Below the pieces are notes generated by a model. That model ran no database searches. It was not told the origin of the DNA and was given only the letters and a program-made list of their open reading frames with translations. DNA of 64,000 bases from Tubulanus polymorphus (Eukaryota > Nemertea > Palaeonemertea > Tubulaniformes > Tubulanidae), in NCBI RefSeq assembly GCF_964204645.1, contig NC_134031.1, positions 17,295,307-17,359,306 on the forward strand. Direction: 5' to 3'. How positions within the stretch are numbered: position 1 is the stretch's first letter; each line of letters starts with the position of its first letter. A program made the position numbers and the translations under genes. Shown piece after piece: positions 2,215-62,400 of the stretch.

Positions 2215-5200
2215 TTACCACGGTCGCCAACAGGGGTCGCTGGGGTCAGTGACGCGATTAGTGTCTGCTTTATCGGGTGAACCGGAACTGGAACTGGCAG
2301 CCGGACTAGTTGTGAAGCCGCTTGGCGACGAGCCAAGCGAAGCAGACGATTTCGTTGACGGTGATGTATCGGATGAGGTGACGGTTGATTTTGGCGTTTC
2401 GGGGAGGTTGCACATGTTTGAACCGCTAGGAGGCGAGCTTTCGTTCTTTATCCAGTTTATCTGGTGACTGTTGCTATTGAGCGGTGTCATGTGCAGACTG
2501 TTGGCGGAGTTAACCGGTGAATTTTCTTTCGACGAGGAATACGATTCGACCGGGGACACGGGCGAGTAACGCATAGGCATCGGGCTACAGTACATATTCA
2601 TAGGCTTTTGTTCTAATGGCGATGATTTCTGATTCACCATAGTGTTCATTACTGGCGTCTGCGGCATCGACATGGCAGGAACCCCCATCACCGGGGTTGG
2701 CGTTGCGATGCCGTTATTTTGTCCGTTGTTAAAGATTGGCAGCACGCAATTCGGTATTTGATTCGAGTTGTTCAACATTGTCTGCGGAATGACGAATGCC
2801 AGATCACCATTGGGTAACCTGGTCGGTACGAGTTGGACTCCTTGTTGACCTTGGGTCATAGGAACGTTTACGGGCATCGTTGTATTCGGTAAAATGTTCG
2901 CCGGTGTTTCGCGGTTCATCTGTCCGAGCACGTGTGGGTTTGTCGGCGGGTTCGATATTTTCTTCAAGTTGGTCATCGTATTAGCGAGATGATTCAGGAG
3001 GCGAGCTCGTATTTCTACGTCTAAGCCTTCTAACGAGCCCAGATATCGAGTCACTTCGGTGGCGCACTCGTTGAATCCTGCCGAGTATTTGCCGAGTACA
3101 GACGGATCTTGCGATACGGCACCTGAAATGATAAAAACATATGAACAATGAGTAATATGAAAACTTAAATACAGCTAATGACTGATAAATAATCAAATTA
3201 CGATGTTATCAGGCATAAACATTTTTGGCGCTTTCCCACGATTGTGTCGTTTGAAAAACATAATGGTCGAACCCGGTAATTCATCTGGGATTGGTAAGCA
3301 CTTGTGTGTACGCTGCCTGTTATAAGTTGAACAGAAAGTAAACACATTTCACTGTGTAGAGTTTGTGTCGTTCTTTGTCACCTTTTGAGCCAGGAGAGCA
3401 ACTTGGCATAGCCTAGTTCACAACGTGACGTCATCTAGATTTATATTCGATGGGAAATTATACTCTTTCTCTCTCGAGACTTTTACTACGCGCGTGAAAA
3501 GGCATTCTTTCCACAATTAGATTAGAAAATGAAAGAAAAAATACCGAGAAATCGGTTGACGCGTTGTAATCGAAAATTAGGAGAGATATTTCAAGTATTA
3601 AAGCTTTTTTTTAAAGTGCCGAACAAAGACCAACCCAAGATTTCTATTTCTTTTTCTAGACTTTTTACTTTTCATGAATTCTAACGCGACAAAAATCAGA
3701 TTTGGCGCCAGAAATGATGTTATGTTCGTAAAATGCACTTGACAATCGCTGGCAAGACGCTCGGATAGACACGATGAATAGGGTCATTCATCGCCGTGAA
3801 CACGGAGAAGAATGCAACCCGGAGGCTGAGCGTATAGAACCACCTGATTGCCTACACGACAGGTCCGAAAACTCGAATGACAGGTCCTTTTCAAGACAAT
3901 AATTGATCGCGAAGAAATGATGTTTTTAGTACGAAACCCCCTTTTCATTCAGTAATTTAAAAGTTTGCTTCACCCCGCCAGATCATTCACATCATAGAAA
4001 TTTGAAATCGTCGAAAATGCATGATGGCCAACGGTTTTTGGACGCGCTGCGCGCACTAGCTTCGTTGGGCTTCTTTTTTAACCTATGGCGGCGTCGCACG
4101 CAAAAGTTTTGAAGGCGTAGTAACCAGATTGAAAAAATCACGAGGCTTCAACGGACTGAACGAGGTAACGGATGGAGTGCTCTTGATTTTCGAGATGCGC
4201 TCAAGACCAATCCATTGACAAAAACCGGGATGCTTTTTATCGTGAGAAAATAAAAGAGTTTGGCGCGTATCGTAGGGACACGTAATCATGCCGATTTGTC
4301 GGCTCGATCGAAAAATATAAGAGACAAATTGAGTGTTGTAGAGTGTCCTTGCCGGATACTTACTAGTGAACTGTTGTCGTTGGATTTGCCGGAGATGTTT
4401 TACGCTCATTTCGAGGATATCAGCTTTCTCCATTCTATTGGCTGGTCTTCCGCCCTGAAGTGGCAAAGGTACACGATTATAATGTAGGTTGAGTTTACTA
4501 TAAGTATTTGGCTCAGGAACCCGTGAGAAACGAAGGGAGTTTGAAAAAAATATGTTTGTTAACGGAACATATCTATCCACCTGTTTGCTCAGGTTTTTAA
4601 GTCTAATACTTTAAGCGAAATGTTAGGTCAGGTGCAATCTCCAAATGAATACACGATGGCAAATAAAAAGTACGCTTTATGATAAACTGAGAATTATGAG
4701 AATGAACCGTATGTATACATATATAGAAATCAAGACTAATAGAAATCAAAATTGTCGAAGGCTTGCTTTCCCTATGTGCGGTACAATTACAGGTAATTTG
4801 GAGTTTTATTGTTGCCAATAATTGTCATTCAGACAAATGCTTGAATGCAGAGACGCCAAAAAGCGAAAATTGCTTGTCGTAGTAATTTTTGCATAGAAAG
4901 ATGAAGGCAATCATATTTAAGTATAATCGGTGTCACGCACTAATGCTCACGTCACTTTCGAGAGTTTCGTATCCGGGGCGGTCCACCTGCAGAAGTTTGT
5001 CATACCCCACACGTGCATATCTATACCAGGAAGTGTTATAGACATACCGACTCTACAAGGTGGCACCAGGAAATCCGAAACCCGACTCAAGACGACAAGA
5101 TACATATTAGAATAATAGAAAAGCGTATATTTACCTCTTTGCGCATGACCTCCAACAGAATAGCTTTCAGTTCTAATAGGCTAGCATTGATTCGAGCCCG

Positions 5201-34840: not shown

Positions 34841-36920
34841 TTAATATCCTCCAGGAAGTGTTGGAGTAACAGCCTCTTTTAGTTGATCTCCGCTTTGTTC
34901 AAAGTCTGTACTTGAAGCACGCGATCCGTACGAGGAGGTCCCACCGTATTTCTTCGGGCGATCTTGATCGAAATCCAGACTAGAAGCTCGAGACCCGTAC
35001 GATGGGTATTTCTTCGGCCTGTCCTCCCTAGCTCTGAGGTTTCCACGTTCGTTACTGAACCAAATTCCATACGCGAAATATAGTAGCAGACCTAAATGTA
35101 AATAAGATACAAACGGTGAGCTACGAACATTTCATTTGAATCAGTCTCCAATCTAATCGTGGACTTACCAAATACCATCCATACACAAAATCGTATCCAA
35201 GCGCTAGAAGAAAGTTGTAACAACAAAACCACGTTCAACAGCATACTGAGTACCGGTAGAAATGGTACAAACGGCATCTGAAATAAGAATGACAATACAT
35301 GTAAAAAGGGTTCGGGGATTTCGATGGTACTGCGCATTTGTGTGTTTACCGTACCTGGAAAGTTAGGGATGAACTCGATCGGTGGTGCATCAGGATGATA
35401 CCGTAGAGGACAAGAATGAGGAATAGGAAAATAGCCAATAGAAGGAACAGCCACCAATTCGTCCAGTATTCACCGTAACGTATCAACAGCCCGATACCAA
35501 TCATCGGTAAGAGCATCAGGACACAGCACACTCCAACCAAACGTCCAGCACGAAATCTTTTGAGTCCAGGAATGCGGCTGAATTGGGGTTTTAGCTTGCC
35601 AACCTTCAAAGTGGGGTTGATCAGTTCCCGTGAGTCGTCGTCTCGTGGGTCGAGAAGGTAGCTATCGGGCTGGTCGGTAATGTATCGTAATACAATTAGG
35701 CACGCGGAGATCGTCGTAATTGCTACCAACGTACCAATAGACACGAACTCCGCAAGCGTAGAAACATCCATGATACAGGCCAAAACAGCAGCAACAAAGC
35801 TAAGGACGACTACGGCAAGGATAGGTGTCTGGGTGCTGGTGTTGACGTTGGCCATGAATTTAAAGAGCAACCCATCGCGAGACATAGCAAAGGCCGTTCT
35901 TGAAACCGAATAGATATTGCCCAAACATGTTCCTGTAATCGCCACCAGGGCAGCCACGTTGGATACGATCGATGCCCACTCCATGTCAAGTCGTTGGAAA
36001 GCTACGGCAAAGGCGGCGTTTGGGTCGACCAAGTAAAAAGGTGATAAGAAAGACAAGGCGAGAGACATCGCTACGTAAAGGATCGTAACAAACACCATGG
36101 CCGATATGTTGGCAAAGGGTAATGTCGTGGAAGGTTCGTTGGTTTCTTCAGCCGCTATGGTAATAGCGTCATAGCCGTAGAAAGCGTAGATCAGCATAGC
36201 GGTTCCTCCGAACAGGCCTTGTGCTCCAAACGGGACGTACCCACCACGTTCGGTGTTGCGGACATTCTCAACATCCGCATGCAATGCAGAAGCTACAATA
36301 ATCACGATGGCCAGAGCCGTATTGCAAACCGCTATGAAAGCAGTGATACCGACCGTCTCCCGGACTCCGAGTACGACCACGATCGCCAATAAGATTACAA
36401 TACCCATGGCAAGAAAATCCGGATATTCTTTTTCTCCGGCCAAGTAGAAAAATCCGGTCGCATTTTCTGTGGCATTGCTGAGCCATCCGCCGGTCAGAAG
36501 ATTCACAGTAGCGCTCCATGTTCGTGCCGCCACGGCAGTAGTTATGCAATGCTCCAGCAGAATATTCCAACCGATCACGAAAGCTAAGAATTCACCTACT
36601 GTCACGTAGGCGAACGTAAATGATGACCCGGATTTAGGCACCCGAGCCCCGAACTCGGCGTAAACAAGCGCCGATATCATGGATACTGCGCCGGCCATTA
36701 AGTAGGCCAGTGGTGCAGCCGGGCCAGCTTTTGCTCGTACGACTTCTCCCGTTAACACGTATATCCCAGCACCGGTCATTTGACCAATACCAAAAAGGAT
36801 CAACCACGGTGTTGAGATGCATCTTCTCAGTTCAGTCTTCAGGATGTCGTCATCTTCTAGAGTTTTCGTCCGAGTTAGTTTCTCCCAGAATTCAATCGGA
36901 GTGCAACACCTCCCCTTCAT
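34841..36920 (-). CDS. SLC7A4: Cationic amino acid transporter family protein, SLC7A4/CAT4-like, three coding exons
   Basis: Exons on minus: 36920-35355, 35277-35169 and 35091-34841 (stop TAA at 34843-34841), giving 641 aa, the usual CAT length. The fold is a plasma- or endomembrane APC-superfamily carrier with many hydrophobic segments. Family marks seen: LEDDDILKTELRRCIST before the first membrane segment, then FGIGQMTGAGIYVLTGEVV (43-61), YAEFGARVPKSGS (87-99), YVTVGEF and GWNILLEH. The N-terminal LRRC and STP words are closest to CAT4 as I remember it. Exons 2 and 3 supply the last two membrane segments and a cytosolic tail. The tail holds a tandem repeat: DRPKKY with YGSRASSLDF, then DRPKKY with YGSRASSTDF (582-624). 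Known role of the family: arginine/lysine transport, though vertebrate CAT4 transport has been hard to show. Substrate here is not known. Confidence 0.9.
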
Positions 36921-37520
36921 TGCGGCTCACCGATTTTCTGCTGCTGAAAGATTTTAACGTTCTTTCAAAATTCAAATAAGACAAAATATTCCATAATGCT
37001 CTTCGTTACTTCAACCAGGAATACCAGGATATGCAATTTGGAAAAAATCAACAGGTGGTTCTTTTGTCCGACTTTGTGCTAATTGCATAGATTTTTGCTA
37101 GAAGAATTCCAATACGGAAATCGATGGTACTTTAAAGGGCGTTGTAATTTAATCATTATAATGCATATACCTTATCTCAAATGGGCTATTGTCCTTTCGA
37201 AGAAGGGACAACCCTATTTCGACGTTTTCTTAAACCAATCTATCTATTATTTCCTTTGTCTAAGTCAATCGACGGATGAGAAATCTAAAAGACGAATAAA
37301 TTCTTTTGAAACTAAGAAATGGAATTGAGATTAAAAGAAAGTTAAACATTCTTTTGCCAAATTAATGTTTCGTGTTTAGTAAAAGTGTCGCAATGTTCAA
37401 GAAACATGAATAAGTCAAATCGAATGAAACAGACGGCTATGGTCATAATGATTATATCATTTATCGACGATTAAATAAGCAACAAAAACTTACCCGCACC
37501 GATATCCATCTTTAACAGGA
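36921..37520 (-). promoter_or_regulatory. Probable 5'UTR exon junction of the transporter gene
   Basis: An acceptor CTTTCAG ends at 36944, 23 nt before the ATG. A strong donor GGGTAAGTT lies at 37494/37493. A non-coding first exon ending at 37494 joined to 36943 is therefore likely. That exon holds an ATG (ATGGATATCGGTGCG) which, after joining, hits TGA within about 11 codons. It would be a short upstream ORF. Predicted from splice signals only. Confidence 0.4.
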
Positions 37521-38182: not shown

Positions 38183-38322
38183 GTTTATATTGTATGGTAT
38201 TCGTTTCATAGTTCGATATCATTTTGTAATGCATGTACCAGTAAATGTTTAAGTTTATATTGTATGGGTTTCGTTTCATAGTTCGATATCATTTTGTAAT
38301 GCATGTGCCAGTAAATGTTTAA
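38183..38322. repeat. Two-copy 70-bp tandem repeat upstream of PRDX6
   Basis: Units 38183-38252 and 38253-38322 match at all but a few positions (for example GTATTCG versus GGTTTCG and GTACCAG versus GTGCCAG). It lies about 75 bp upstream of the CRE-like sites of PRDX6. The high identity suggests a recent duplication. Confidence 0.9.
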
Positions 38323-41733: not shown

Positions 41734-41757
41734 GACGTATAAACTAGTTTATACGTC
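41734..41757. repeat. Perfect 24-bp palindrome
   Basis: GACGTATAAACT followed directly by its exact reverse complement, with no spacer. Origin unknown; it could be a footprint of a transposon end or a chance palindrome in AT-rich DNA. Confidence 0.8.
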
Positions 41758-44700
41758 CATGCTTGGGGAAATCAGACTGTCGTCAGAATACTCCACGATT
41801 ACTCCTGCACACATTGCACGTGGGCCCAGTGCCCTCCAAGTTGTTTCTAAGTTCAGCCCGCAATTTCAAAGGCTTGCGCTGGATCCATCACTTAACATCT
41901 TTTAGTTATTCTGAATTGCGAAAATGACCTTATTTTATAAAGTAGTTAAATGAAAATGAATCATCATTATATATCAAAAGAGTGAACCGTATTTTCAGAA
42001 ATCGAGAGTAAATGATTTTGTTCATTCTCGTGTCATGCACATTCGTGAATCAAAAAAATAATGGATATGAAATGCCACGAGAAAAAGTCTAAAAAATGGT
42101 CCACAATATCCTAGTAGTCTTCTTCAGGCCCGAAATACTAGTGACAAAATGACTATCCTTTTTTCTAAGCGTGGGATTTTATACTATCGTTACAACACGA
42201 ACTGTTTCATCAATGGTTAAAAAAGATACTTGAATTTCTCCGTGCAACGAAATCCCATCAAAGAGTTTCAAAGCTTCGCGGTTGCGTGACGGGCTCGTTT
42301 TACTTCGACGTCACGTGAAATTTCATCGTTGAGAGCAAAAACCCGATTCTTTTAAACTTTATCTCAACGACGCGAAATTGATCTCGCAACAAAGCGACGC
42401 ACGAAAGACATGTAAGCCATCATCGGTATTAGTTGATCTCGCAGGCTGCGACTATAACGGAAACCCGATACGAAACGTTCCCACGTATATCCACACGATC
42501 ACGCCACTGAAAATTCGTCTACACAATAGATGTTTTCTTTTTAATTAAGTGGAAAGAGATTTTACGTAAGGAACAAATTGATGGCATTTTCTGACTCAAA
42601 TCATAAACGAAATTATCTTCAGATGGGTCTCGACGCTTGTGAGGTCAAGAGATGTGCATCGGGATATAGTTCGTGAGAGTTCCAAAGCGAAAAAGCATGA
42701 ACAGAGAACGCTAACCTCGGCCTACGAGCAATTATCTCAAATTGAGTCAAATTTTGGTTTAAGTGAAAAAATTGCTCGTAGCCTCGCCTAACTCGACAAG
42801 CTGGGCCGGAAAAATTGGTCCGAGGTAAGCGTAAATACGTAGGGAGCCAGAAAAATTATTTCCGTTTCGTCCGAGTAGGTACAAAATCCTGAGGTGGTCA
42901 TGTCCAAACAAGAAAAAAAGGTACTAATGGGTTTTTTTTGGTGGGGGGGGGGAGGGGTAAGGTATATATGCATTCGAAACCACAAAAGTTTACGATCTCC
43001 TTAATTATGAAAAATAACTCGTCGCCTCGAGGAGTAGATACGTCGGAATTACCCTTATTGTTCCTGCATTATTTCATAGCCGAGCAACGGAAAGAATATC
43101 CGTGTGTGACGTTTGCCCTTCGTACATGGTTGAACGCATTAAATTCGCTTTCATTACCGAGCATTCATGACGGCTAAATGGGGCCAAATCAGCCGGCTTG
43201 TACTTGGAAAATGCCTGCAACAGAAATTCAAGAGAAATTCTCAACAGACTGTACCCGTTGATTGGGGGACTAGGCGGATTTTTCGTTAGAGCGATTGTTG
43301 GCGCGCGCGAGACACCGGTTTTATGTATTATGTGTGTAGCCCTATGTCTACGTTCGGCTGAACGTTTTGTTAGTATTTGCTAACGAAAGAAATCCGCGCC
43401 CGAGTCCATAATGGCTTCTAATTAATCATTAAGCCCATTGAAAAGCCCCCATACGCTAATGGAGAAGTAAGAATGCCCTCTGATCAGTCCTTGTACAAAC
43501 AATCGCTAGGAATTGCTGATTAACGCTATTCACTGATCTTAGCTCGTTAAAACGAGAATGAAGTTTGATCAGTTTTGCCCAGGAGGCTTCCATGTATCTT
43601 CCTACAGTAACAGCGCGTCTTGCGCACCAATACAAGACTATCATGAGGTCAGAAAGCTCGCTTTTAAATTTCCGGGGTTGTTTTCGACAATCAGGGTATG
43701 CTTGCGCTGAAAGACTTATACAAGATTCAGCACGACCATCAGACAACTTTCTAATCTGTCACTCTTCTCTAAAAATAGAAGGAATGTAGAAATACTTAAG
43801 AACTTTTAACCATTGTTTTAGGGATATGACTTTCCTTAAATACATACATGTATATACAGTAGTGAATTACGGAGAAATAATTGTTCAGAAATTGCAGTCT
43901 TTACCACAAGATGGCGTTGCCGACGGCCGCGACTTCTCAAATAGACCGCTAATTGGTTTATTCATGTTAAGTCATATAATACTTACATACGGTTCAATTC
44001 AATTAGGAACTCGATTAGTAAATGGAAAGTATGTCTGGATATGACAACCAACGCCCAAATTGCTGGTAGAATTGACGTCAAAACCTGCTATTTATAATCG
44101 CCCGTAAAACGCAGCACACAAAACTCCATTGAATATCCATTTAGTTTTATTGAACATTTTAAACGATAATTCCAATCAAGTTGTTTTAGGCGAATGTATT
44201 GGTGTTCAGGTCTTTTGTAGATTTGTATTATACTTGTATAAGACGTTGTGTAGGATGTGCGATAACAAAAATATTCTACTTATTCTTTTAATCAGGTCGA
44301 CAGTTCGACGATCTCTGAAATATGCGGTTATTTTTTTCTAATTTATTGTTCACACATTCCGCCGTCCAAACACCTTCGCAGAACTAATCACGTGGACCAG
44401 CAGTTCATTATCTTGATTCGGTCTATTCGATTGACGGGGTGGGAGGGAAATCATTATCTTCATTCATGACTCACTAACTGACGAAGCTAATGGCTGCTTT
44501 ATCAAGCAATAGCTGCAACCGCACCAGGCTCACAACCTTCCAGTCAGCCGAGCTGTACACATCAACCGCTCTTCGTATTAATAATCGCACTTTTTTACTA
44601 CCAAATCAATGATATAAAAAAGAACGTCATTCTAGAATTTACTGGAGTTATCATAGATTCAGTGCCTGTTTTAATTTTTTCGCTTTTGGTGACGGATGAG

Positions 44701-57653: not shown

Positions 57654-59336
57654 AATAGCCCATTAGCGAGTCTGTGTAGTTCGCGGATGAAAAATATTTT
57701 AATGGTCCAATTTGCTTTGTGTACACATTCACAGCTGAATGCAGTGCCACGATAATCATTAGGATCCGCCGAGTTTACTAATTATCACAAGTTGTATTTG
57801 AAGGTAGTCATTAGACGTTTACTCGGGCGCATTTCGATGCTTATTACCCCTACCTCTTTCTGCGTTCGCCGCCTCGTTATTTCGGCCAATTAACCATATA
57901 CTCGTTTCCTTTGCGAACGAGAAAGAAAGCTGCCGCAAAAAGAGCAACGGCGCATTTTTAAAGCGATTTTTCATATGCGCCTCCGTCCTGCTTTTCAAGA
58001 CGTGAAGATCTTGCGTCACGATTATCAGACATTAAAAAGACAAATATAATTGTGCCCCCTTCTTTCGAAAGCATCTGTTAATTGCCTTTTCCGACCCGTT
58101 GTAATCGGTATGAATAGATCTGGGGCCCGTTGCTCAAATGTTGGTTAGAGCTAGCCAGTGGATAAATGCCATAAGAAGCTACTAATGATCGTGCGCCCAT
58201 CCCTAGCACTTCTACGACCGAGGGCTGGTGATAACACGTGCAGTCCTTATCGCACGACCGAGCTGTCGCTTTTCGGTGGCGTCTCGTTGAGCCTTTTCCG
58301 CGTGGACATTTCTCCATATAACCGCCATGTGTGAAATCAAACCGAATCGTCTGCTCGCCAGAAACCAAAGACGTGCTAATTCGATATGAAACGACGTACA
58401 TGCGGTGTTGATTTTAAGATTACGCGTTGATTATTACTACTGGAATCACAGCTGCTGGCGAGGATTAGAATTATATACCGGGTCGACATGGCTGCCGCTG
58501 CCAATATAATGGATTGAAACATCATCATCGCCCGGATCTGAGTAGATATCGTCGATCTCGACGTCGCTTCTCTCTTTCTCTTTTCGTGTGGGAATGAAAC
58601 ACGTGCGCACGGCGTCGACGACAGAACAGTGGCGCAGGTATTCCGATTGCTGCAGTGTGACAAATAAGTATATGTTTTCGCCGACGTTTTATGAATATTT
58701 AATGCGATTATGCGAGGGACATGTGTCAACTGAGAAACTGAATTCGCGATTGTGTAGAGAAGAGAGTCTGCGCGAGGCTCCCACGGGAGATGCGTTTTGA
58801 GTGGTTCGGTCATTATGTAGATTTAGTTAAGGGTTGATTTCGCGATTGACCCACTCTTGCGCAACGAGTATCACTGAGCCGAGTGCATCCAATTAAAACC
58901 CCGGTACGTACCAGATGCAATACACCTGTACAATCATTGCCAATCTAATTGATCCATTTACCATCGTCATATATGATGAGTATAAACTGTTTGTTCAGAT
59001 TAATTGATTTGTGGTGTGTAAATCAAAACGCAGGTTTTTCAGCGTCGAAAGATTTATCCGTGGCAGTGGTGTATCCAGGCGATGGTTTTGGGAGTCCAGA
59101 CCTTTACGTTGGCCGCGAAAGCCTTTTTTGTCATGACAGGGACCCATAAAACCTATGAACTCGATACTCATTCCAGGAAATTGTATTTAGGGTGAATTTC
59201 TTCAAAAACATTTTACCCCACTTGTGATCTGAAGTGCGGCTCATTCAATCAAGGAATGCTTTTCCTTTTCTTTTATACCCCTGCAGCATTCAACTTTTTC
59301 TAGATCCACCCCAGCCTTGGTCAAACCATACACATT
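57654..59336. other. Non-coding stretch
   Basis: TAAT-rich sequence without a supportable exon. A half copy of the family B MITE lies at about 58123-58170. The 145-aa minus frame at 58376-58813 has no family resemblance. Confidence 0.4.
58123..58170. repeat. Half copy of MITE family B
   Basis: CTGGGGCCCGTTGCTCAAATG followed by TTGGTTAGAGCTAGCC and GTGGATAAATGCC parallels the left end of the complete copy at 26135-26270. No inverted right end is visible nearby. Confidence 0.5.
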
Positions 59337-59471
59337 AAGACGAAAAAGAATACTTGTCTAATAGGTGAGGATATTCTTAAGATTTTGCAGTCAAATCGAT
59401 AGTCACTATCGATTTGACTGCAAAATCTTAAGAATATCCTCACCTATTAGACAAGTATTCTTTTTCGTCTT
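59337..59471. repeat. Near-perfect 135-bp palindrome: two 67-bp arms, one-base centre
   Basis: The left arm 59337-59403 and the right arm 59405-59471 are exact reverse complements over all 67 bp, with a single C at 59404 between them. Outside the arms the match stops at once. No ORF, no transposase and no known terminal motif. The identity implies a recent event, a selected hairpin or an assembly or sequencing foldback. Confidence 0.97.
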
Positions 59472-62400
59472 TTCATTACATGGACGCTTCGAAGAATAAT
59501 TCACATATCTCTCGTGGGAATCAGAAGTTTTTTATTTTACTTACGATACGTTCCTGACACGGGTGCGTGATTCTTGACTCTCGAAACGGTCGCGATCTCG
59601 CGATCCATCAGCGTTTATTGAACATTCGATGAAATCACGGTTTATACATTTTCCACTATTGATAATTGCCTGTATCAATCTTCCGCAGCTCGCTGGAATC
59701 GGGGATTTCTTCGGCGTTTTGTTCAAAATCGTTCTCTTTGAGTGACCATAAATCGTGGCCAAGTCTCCAGGGCGGCGTTCTTTTGACCATGTTATCAGAT
59801 ACGACACGCGTTTCGGCAATCTACAAACTTCAGTTTGTTCTTTCTCTCGTTCGCTCGACTGAGGGCTGCGTTACACTGTATATCCAGCAGTGTGTGTATA
59901 TCAATCACCGTCGAGACAGACACTGCGAAATTGAAAGAAATTTAATTGAATGGAGCGCGGCGTTTGGGGATTTGTTTTGTCGTTTGATACGGGAAAATGT
60001 TATCGTTTGCCTCTTAAATTATGGGACTCTGGTGGTTTCATTTGTACAAGAAGTTGATTGGATAACTTCGCGCGTGGCTGATGCCGGCCTCCATTGCGCT
60101 GTGCACTTCCGGGCAACAGACGAATCGGGATTCACAAGGTCAAGGTTGCACGCACTGATCCGACGATTTCGAACTCGGCGCGTTATTCGGGAAATCGTGA
60201 TAAAGCAGCAAATAGCGAGTCCTCGGGTGATCATAAGTTTCATAAATCCTTGACATCAGAATTTTCCTATCATTGTAACGTCCTGTCGTAGAAGCCACCA
60301 ATAATAAAGGTGTAACGATACGATGATTTAAATGTATGGTAAAGGACAAATATGATTCTCTGTAAAGCTGTACCTTTTCCTGTGTATCATCTAATAATTG
60401 ACCCAATTATCACTATTGCTTATTGATGAATGTGATGATCATCACGGTAGCAATTATCTCTACGGTATCTCAGCATTCTTCGTTAACACGGACATGGTTC
60501 TTATTATGGCGAATTCTTACGGGTTTGTTAGCGAGTAAATTTAGCTAATTGCGGTCGAATGCGATGCTCCATCGGCTTTTAGAGGAAATTCGAAAGCTTT
60601 TAAATTTCCATTACGCTAGATGCACCAGCTGGGAGCCTCGACTCTGGCGAACGGGAAACCGTTCGACGAGATAACAAGACCTTTCTGCGATGCGTGTTGT
60701 ATAATTGAACTTTGAAGAAAAAAAATCGACTTAAGGCTTTCCGCCCGTTATATTACCTCAATTAGATTATTTTAACTCTCAACTGCGTTCAGCAGAGGTA
60801 TTTCTCGTAAGGAGATTGAACTGCTTGGGCAGATTTAGAAACAACAAACAATAGCATTTTTTGCCGTTAGCCCAAGAAAGGAAACTCCAGTATGGGGCGC
60901 CGTGTGGGACATTACCTCAAGTTTTTATCCATGTTGACTTTTCTTATGTTGATAATACAAAGCCTAATAATTTATATCCCAATGCTGATTCTAAACCACT
61001 GTTGAGATTTTTGTAAATTCACTATCGAGAATTGTCTAAACCAAATTCCCAACATCATTTCGGATGATAGCTAAAATGTTAGTACAGCTGTTTTGAGCCA
61101 CTATGATTCCGAAACTTTCCAATTACCCCCATCAAACACAGTTCTCTCGTCTTCAAACTCCGACGCGAGGGTTTATCGGATATTCGAATATGAGGCGAAT
61201 TTACATTGTGTTATGTGTGCGTAATGTCTAATAAGTTTCAATTAATCAAAGTATAATATTTGTATCGCTTGTTGGACAAACATGTTGCGCACTTCGATAT
61301 TAATTTACCCCAACGATCACAGCGCATTAGTTTCGATTCGACTCAGACAGATTCCCGACAAGCCTCTGTGCCTTACAGAGATTTCGATGAAATTTCCTTG
61401 TAGTAGAGATTGGATCACGAGCATATAGGGTCTCTCCACGATTCACAGGTAAATGTTAAATACCGCTGTAAGATGTTTCTCCGACCATCCGGAAAACGTC
61501 AAATAGTTCATTCTGCTGAATGCATTTTTTCTCTAACGCAATTTTCTAAAAATCACCGATAGTGTTAGTTCTTGCTGTGTATAAGCGCCGTTCGTCATAT
61601 TTTGTTTTAGTGAATCGTGTGTATGTTTACAAGACGTAAGTATAAACATACGTCAGCGATTCAGTTCTCTACTTGAAGGGAACGACCACTTAAATCCGCT
61701 GTTTCTGTACACGATGAGTGCCTAAAACCTTCGCGAAAAGTAAGGCAATGACCGCCGTTAAGCTCGACGCGCACGACTCCAGCGAAACATGGAACAAAGA
61801 AACAGGAAACACCTGATCGATCATGTTTTATCTCGGAAACGTTGATTCCCGAATCCAAGTTCCTCGCTTCTCATAAACGCATATACGACGGGCAGTGAAA
61901 CATATTTCTGTTTCCGCGTTTTCTCTGCGTCGTATGCGTTGGGCTTTAGGCGCAAATCGGAAAGAATTTAGTGATGGAAATAAATAAAATCGGAAGAGTT
62001 TCACTGGTTAATGGTGATTGTATACTTAGCGGCACTCGGCGAGTCGAAAAAAAGCTAAAACACGTATTTCGCGCGGTAATGCTCGACCGGCGTGTTGTTT
62101 TCATGCGATAAACAGCACGTTTTCTTGATATAAAATATAGTTTAATTGACTCTACCTCCTGTCCGTTATGAGCCATTAAGTTAATTCTTCGCTAATGCAT
62201 CGCCGACAAGAAGCTGGGCTAAGGTTCTCGTTTTATCAGCTTCGCCGGTATGTGGTCGCCGATTGGATGGGAACGCAAGTTATACGGACTGTTAATGCAG
62301 TCAGGTATAATGTTCTAATAGGTAACTATTATCGTCTAGGATTTTCTCTCTATCACTTGATAAGGTGATGGACATTTTTCCATTTGAAGCGTGTATGCGC

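What the first reader, a model, noticed from the sequence alone, without database searches (positions are those of the whole stretch)
59337..59471. A 67-bp-arm perfect palindrome with a one-base centre
Two 67-bp arms are exact reverse complements around a single C. Long palindromes with almost no spacer are unstable and rare. The options are a very recent inverted duplication, a hairpin with a role (for example a double-stranded RNA source), an uncharacterised palindromic mobile unit, or an assembly or foldback artefact. The arms match nothing else I noticed in the window.
Basis: seen in the sequence. Interest (0 to 1): 0.7.

Follow-up and report, generated by a model that had tools for sequence, protein, structure and literature searches.

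The report
Single-copy 135-bp perfect palindrome in insect
A real, exact 67-letter mirror-image repeat with a one-letter centre sits once in this (probably insect) genome, and it looks like the scar of a single DNA-copying slip in which the polymerase briefly turned back on its own strand, a known kind of mutation, not a new element.

Summary
In detail: 59337-59403 and 59405-59471 are exact 67-bp reverse complements around one C. Chance is excluded: the next-longest perfect short-spaced palindrome in the window has 13-bp arms, and the longest other one in 302.5 kb sampled from the same genome has 27-bp arms and is a high-copy repeat. The genome is a 268-Mb eukaryotic assembly, probably an insect. 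The arm occurs nowhere else in it, exactly or with up to 3 mismatches in two inner sub-windows; a third, at the arm's end, gave only hits at the control level. No clean target-site duplication, repeat family, Rfam match, reading frame or second copy supports a transposable element, microRNA or target-derived hairpin RNA. Best explanation (about 0.78): one local template-switch or foldback-synthesis event copied about 67 nt of adjacent DNA in reverse complement. Published events of this class reach 128 nt in apes and about 150 bp in yeast. The pre-event allele, raw reads and small RNAs were not available, so the event itself is inferred. An assembly artefact is unlikely but untested. I rate it a long example of a known mutation class, of low-to-moderate interest.

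The parts
59337..59403 (+). left arm, 67 bp, 31% GC
   Evidence: exact reverse complement of 59405-59471; no other copy in the genome
59404..59404 (.). single-base centre (C); the folded hairpin has a 3-nt TCA loop
59405..59471 (-). right arm, 67 bp
59333..59337 (+). CATTA beside (and 1 nt into) the left arm, repeated directly on the right: possible microhomology, weak as a TSD
   Evidence: random places in the window give a match this long in 4.6-16% of trials, depending on flank width
59474..59478 (+). second CATTA, 2 nt beyond the right arm
59060..59312 (+). neighbouring old dispersed repeat with 65-75% identical copies on at least 3 other chromosomes, ending in GATCCACCCC; it stops 24 bp before the palindrome and is not part of it

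Best explanation
This is the product of one local template-switch (foldback) synthesis event in unique, apparently non-coding insect DNA. During replication or break repair the 3' end of a nascent strand re-primed on its own strand, or on the sister template, a few bases away. It copied about 67 nt backwards, then rejoined the original template or the other broken end. The copied piece is the exact reverse complement of its neighbour, so a palindrome with a nearly absent spacer appears in a single step. Shown: anatomy, exactness, single copy, unique non-mirrored flanks, absence of family relatives. Inferred: the event itself, which arm is the original, and recency. No selected function is needed.
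For: The arms are exact with a 1-nt centre, and there is no change in 134 paired sites. At 1e-9 to 7e-9 changes per site per generation (assumed rates), zero changes bounds a neutral age to under roughly 3-22 million generations at 95%. The arm, three sub-windows of it and both 1-kb flanks show no second copy of this locus. Template switching is known to create perfect inverted repeats and hairpin stems in one step (PMC8794818). In great apes the copied fragment has a median of 12 nt and a maximum of 128 (PMC7954356). Foldback inverted duplications at yeast DSBs range from 2 to about 150 bp and have 0-5 bp of microhomology at the capture side (PMC11724301), so a 67-nt copy is within the observed range. 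Perfect palindromes with arms of 12 bp or more are in clear excess over shuffles in this genome (27 against about 1.4 expected), although several of those are repeat families.
Against: The pre-event allele was not seen: no relative or second haplotype was available. 67 nt is far above the typical copied length. The centre would need a pre-existing inverted microhomology for an intrastrand switch, and this cannot be reconstructed. Several of the shorter palindromes recur in the sample and so look like repeat-family members, so the genome-wide excess does not itself prove template switching.
Confidence: 0.78

Rival explanations
1. A palindromic non-autonomous DNA element (MITE or foldback element) of which only one copy is present or recognisable in this genome.
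For: Other palindromes in this genome are such elements: the 27-bp-arm one in the sample has dozens of dispersed copies, and several shorter ones recur. A direct CATTA pair flanks the palindrome.
Against: No second copy at any tested stringency; end-pattern hits with 3 mismatches are at the control level. The CATTA pair overlaps the arm by 1 nt on one side and is 2 nt off on the other, and is matched by chance in 4.6-16% of trials.
Confidence: 0.08
2. A functional hairpin: a newly born microRNA or hairpin-siRNA locus, transcribed and diced.
For: The transcript would fold into a near-perfect 66-bp stem with a 3-nt loop, -111.5 kcal/mol including flanks, z -25. Template switching has founded microRNAs such as MIR633 (PMC8794818).
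Against: No Rfam match. There is no complementary target: D. [quoted passage not shown] A 66-bp perfect stem is atypical for a miRNA. No transcription data.
Confidence: 0.06
3. An assembly or library artefact (chimeric foldback molecule incorporated in the consensus).
For: Inverted chimeras are common in amplified or long-read libraries (general knowledge). Reads could not be examined.
Against: A foldback read mirrors everything up to the read end. Here only 67 bp are mirrored and unique, non-complementary flanks continue on both sides. A consensus needs agreement of many reads. Both flanks are single copy in a chromosome-scale contig.
Confidence: 0.08

Closest known systems
Short-range template-switch mutations (four-point model; Loytynoja and Goldman; great-ape survey PMC7954356; RNA-hairpin origin PMC8794818)
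   Same: An exact reverse-complement copy of adjacent sequence, forming a perfect inverted repeat in one step; single locus; length within the observed maximum of 128 nt.
   Different: Much longer than the median of 12 nt. The ancestral allele was not available here, so the four switch points cannot be placed.
Foldback inverted insertions at double-strand breaks (yeast, Pol delta plus NHEJ/Alt-EJ; PMC11724301)
   Same: A local templated inverted duplication of 2 to about 150 bp, with little microhomology at the capture side.
   Different: The yeast hotspot has a 41-nt spacer between the priming microhomologies; here the spacer is 1 nt. The break is not observed.
Palindromic MITE-like repeats of the same genome (for example L039:4867-4934)
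   Same: Perfect inverted arms with a short spacer.
   Different: Those occur in dozens of dispersed copies; this one is unique.
Hairpin RNAs (hpRNA) of Drosophila (PMC10292708)
   Same: A transcript would fold into a long perfect hairpin.
   Different: No complementary target in the genome; no evidence of transcription.

Membership tests
Short-range template-switch mutation | copied segment is an exact reverse complement of nearby sequence | tested here: met
   67 of 67 positions, 1-nt centre
Short-range template-switch mutation | derived allele absent from a close relative, whose sequence supplies the source arm | not testable with these tools
   no relatives held; flank searches find no second copy of the locus
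Short-range template-switch mutation | copied length within the range seen in other genomes | tested here: met
   67 nt against a maximum of 128 in great apes (PMC7954356) and about 150 bp in yeast (PMC11724301)
Palindromic MITE / foldback element | dispersed copies in the genome | tested here: not met
   only this locus
Palindromic MITE / foldback element | target-site duplication directly abutting the termini | tested here: not met
   CATTA pair is out of register with the arm ends and no better than 4.6-16% chance
[quoted passage not shown]
   no match with up to 3 mismatches to two 23-25-nt inner sub-windows; four 3-mismatch hits to the 22-nt end window, at the level of the reversed-pattern control (5); no BLAST match at E 10
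hpRNA (endo-siRNA hairpin) | 21-22-nt small RNAs from the arms | not testable with these tools
   no RNA data
microRNA gene of a known family | match to an Rfam model | tested here: not met
   no Rfam match in the window at gathering threshold

The most novel reading that the evidence does not exclude
A newly created hairpin locus, caught before its arms diverged, that is transcribed and diced and so represents the first step of a de novo microRNA or siRNA gene born by template switching.
Probability: 0.04. Interest if true: 0.6.

Novelty: new member of a known kind. Interest (0 to 1): 0.22.

Why it matters
If real, it is an unusually long and clean example of one-step palindrome formation in an animal germline. 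Sister-species or population data could directly place the switch points and show how fast a perfect 135-bp palindrome decays. It is raw material for hairpin RNAs and a possible local fragile or mutation-prone site, but it changes no current view.

Tried and rejected
Known RNA family: Rfam gave nothing. tRNA: none. Coding sequence: stop codons in two of the three + frames of the palindrome's first arm and no long frame across it (one search shows frames 0, 1 and 2 each interrupted), and the open frames nearby that I scanned give no Pfam match above its cut-off. Part of a bigger repeat: the left flank carries an old dispersed repeat, 59060-59312, but its paralogues end with it and do not reach the palindrome; the right flank is unique, so no paralogue shows the pre-event state. 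Viral or phage origin: no exact match of a 29-nt piece of the arm in viral contigs; only chance-level 28-nt hits in phages (E 0.5). Target-site duplication: weak and out of register. Searches for papers on palindromes in Hymenoptera gave nothing pertinent.

Full report
The window is C7:17295307-17359306 of a 267.8-Mb, 77-contig eukaryotic assembly. It carries a gene with a Hairy/Orange domain ending in WRPW at 2215-3174 (-) and an amino-acid-permease gene at 35346-36926 (-). The genome is probably an insect's; the species was not identified.

Observation. The palindrome is exact: 67 bp, one C, 67 bp. Outside 59337 and 59471 the flanks are not complementary. As RNA or DNA it folds into one uninterrupted stem with a three-base TCA loop, at -111.5 and -76.5 kcal/mol including flanks, with z-scores near -25 and -24.

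Background in the genome. I sampled 22 stretches of 10 kb from 12 contigs, plus the window and a few short loci (302.5 kb in all). Perfect palindromes with arms of 12 bp or more and spacers up to 30 number 27, against about 1.4 in second-order shuffles. The top arm lengths are 67, 27, 18, 17 and 17. The 27-bp one is a dispersed repeat with dozens of copies, and several of the shorter ones recur in the sample, which suggests palindromic MITEs. So the genome is rich in small palindromes, partly because of such repeats, but the 67-bp one is an outlier in length and is not a repeat. The sample is too small to give a genome-wide rate for long arms.

Copy number. The arm plus left flank finds only itself. 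The arm alone finds only itself at E up to 10. Two inner sub-windows of 23 and 25 nt with up to 3 mismatches find only itself. The 22-nt end gives four 3-mismatch hits against five for the reversed-pattern control, which is chance. The right flank is unique. The left flank contains an old, 65-75% conserved dispersed repeat (59060-59312, ending in GATCCACCCC) that stops 24 bp before the palindrome.

Mechanism. A near-zero spacer, perfect arms, unique flanks that are not mirrored, no relatives and no clean target-site duplication are what a single local template-switch or foldback copy leaves behind. Published work shows that such events create perfect inverted repeats and hairpin stems in one step, and have founded microRNA loci (PMC8794818). 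In great apes the copied segment has a median of 12 and a maximum of 128 nt (PMC7954356). In yeast, foldback insertions at breaks reach about 150 bp, with 0-5 bp of microhomology at the captured end (PMC11724301). A survey of 118,019 genomes finds perfect inverted repeats enriched across eukaryotes, with zero spacer commonest (PMC13155455). The present case lies within those ranges but at the long end. The direct repeat CATTA around the palindrome could be junction microhomology, but random positions give as much in 4.6-16% of trials.

Age. Without selection or arm-to-arm correction, zero changes in 134 sites puts the 95% bound at about 3-22 million generations for assumed mutation rates of 7e-9 to 1e-9. 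This is a loose limit, and quasi-palindrome correction can also keep arms identical.

Rivals. A one-copy MITE lacks copies and a proper TSD. A target-derived hairpin RNA lacks a target; Drosophila hpRNAs have one or a few highly complementary ones (PMC10292708). A newborn microRNA cannot be excluded without small-RNA data. An artefact would have to mirror just 67 bp and then continue into unique sequence on both sides in the consensus; this is unlikely but needs reads.

Stability. Strong fragility has been measured for perfect palindromes with 320-bp and longer arms in yeast (PMC8053094). Whether 67-bp arms matter in this species is unknown.

It is best read as a long, clean example of a known class of mutation, with no evidence of function.

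Noticed in passing
42722-42781: Short inverted-repeat unit with ends CTACGAGCAATTATC / its near reverse complement; the same ends occur as a 17-bp-arm palindrome on another chromosome (L008:5099-5134). Probably a small MITE family.
   Followed up: partly
41734-41757: Perfect palindrome GACGTATAAACTAGTTTATACGTC, seen again with a 3-nt spacer on another contig (L033:8282-8310); probably another palindromic MITE or its end.
   Followed up: no
59060-59312: Old dispersed repeat of about 250 bp; right end GATCCACCCC and left end GTGGTGTATCC look like decayed terminal inverted repeats. Related copies at C3:3330432, C1:23025560 and C9:15929921.
   Followed up: partly
L039:4867-4934: 27-bp-arm palindrome that is an abundant repeat in this genome (962 first-look candidates, 40 scored; other copies listed at 76-97% identity).
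   Followed up: partly
38183-38322: Two tandem copies of a 70-bp unit, 95% alike.
   Followed up: no
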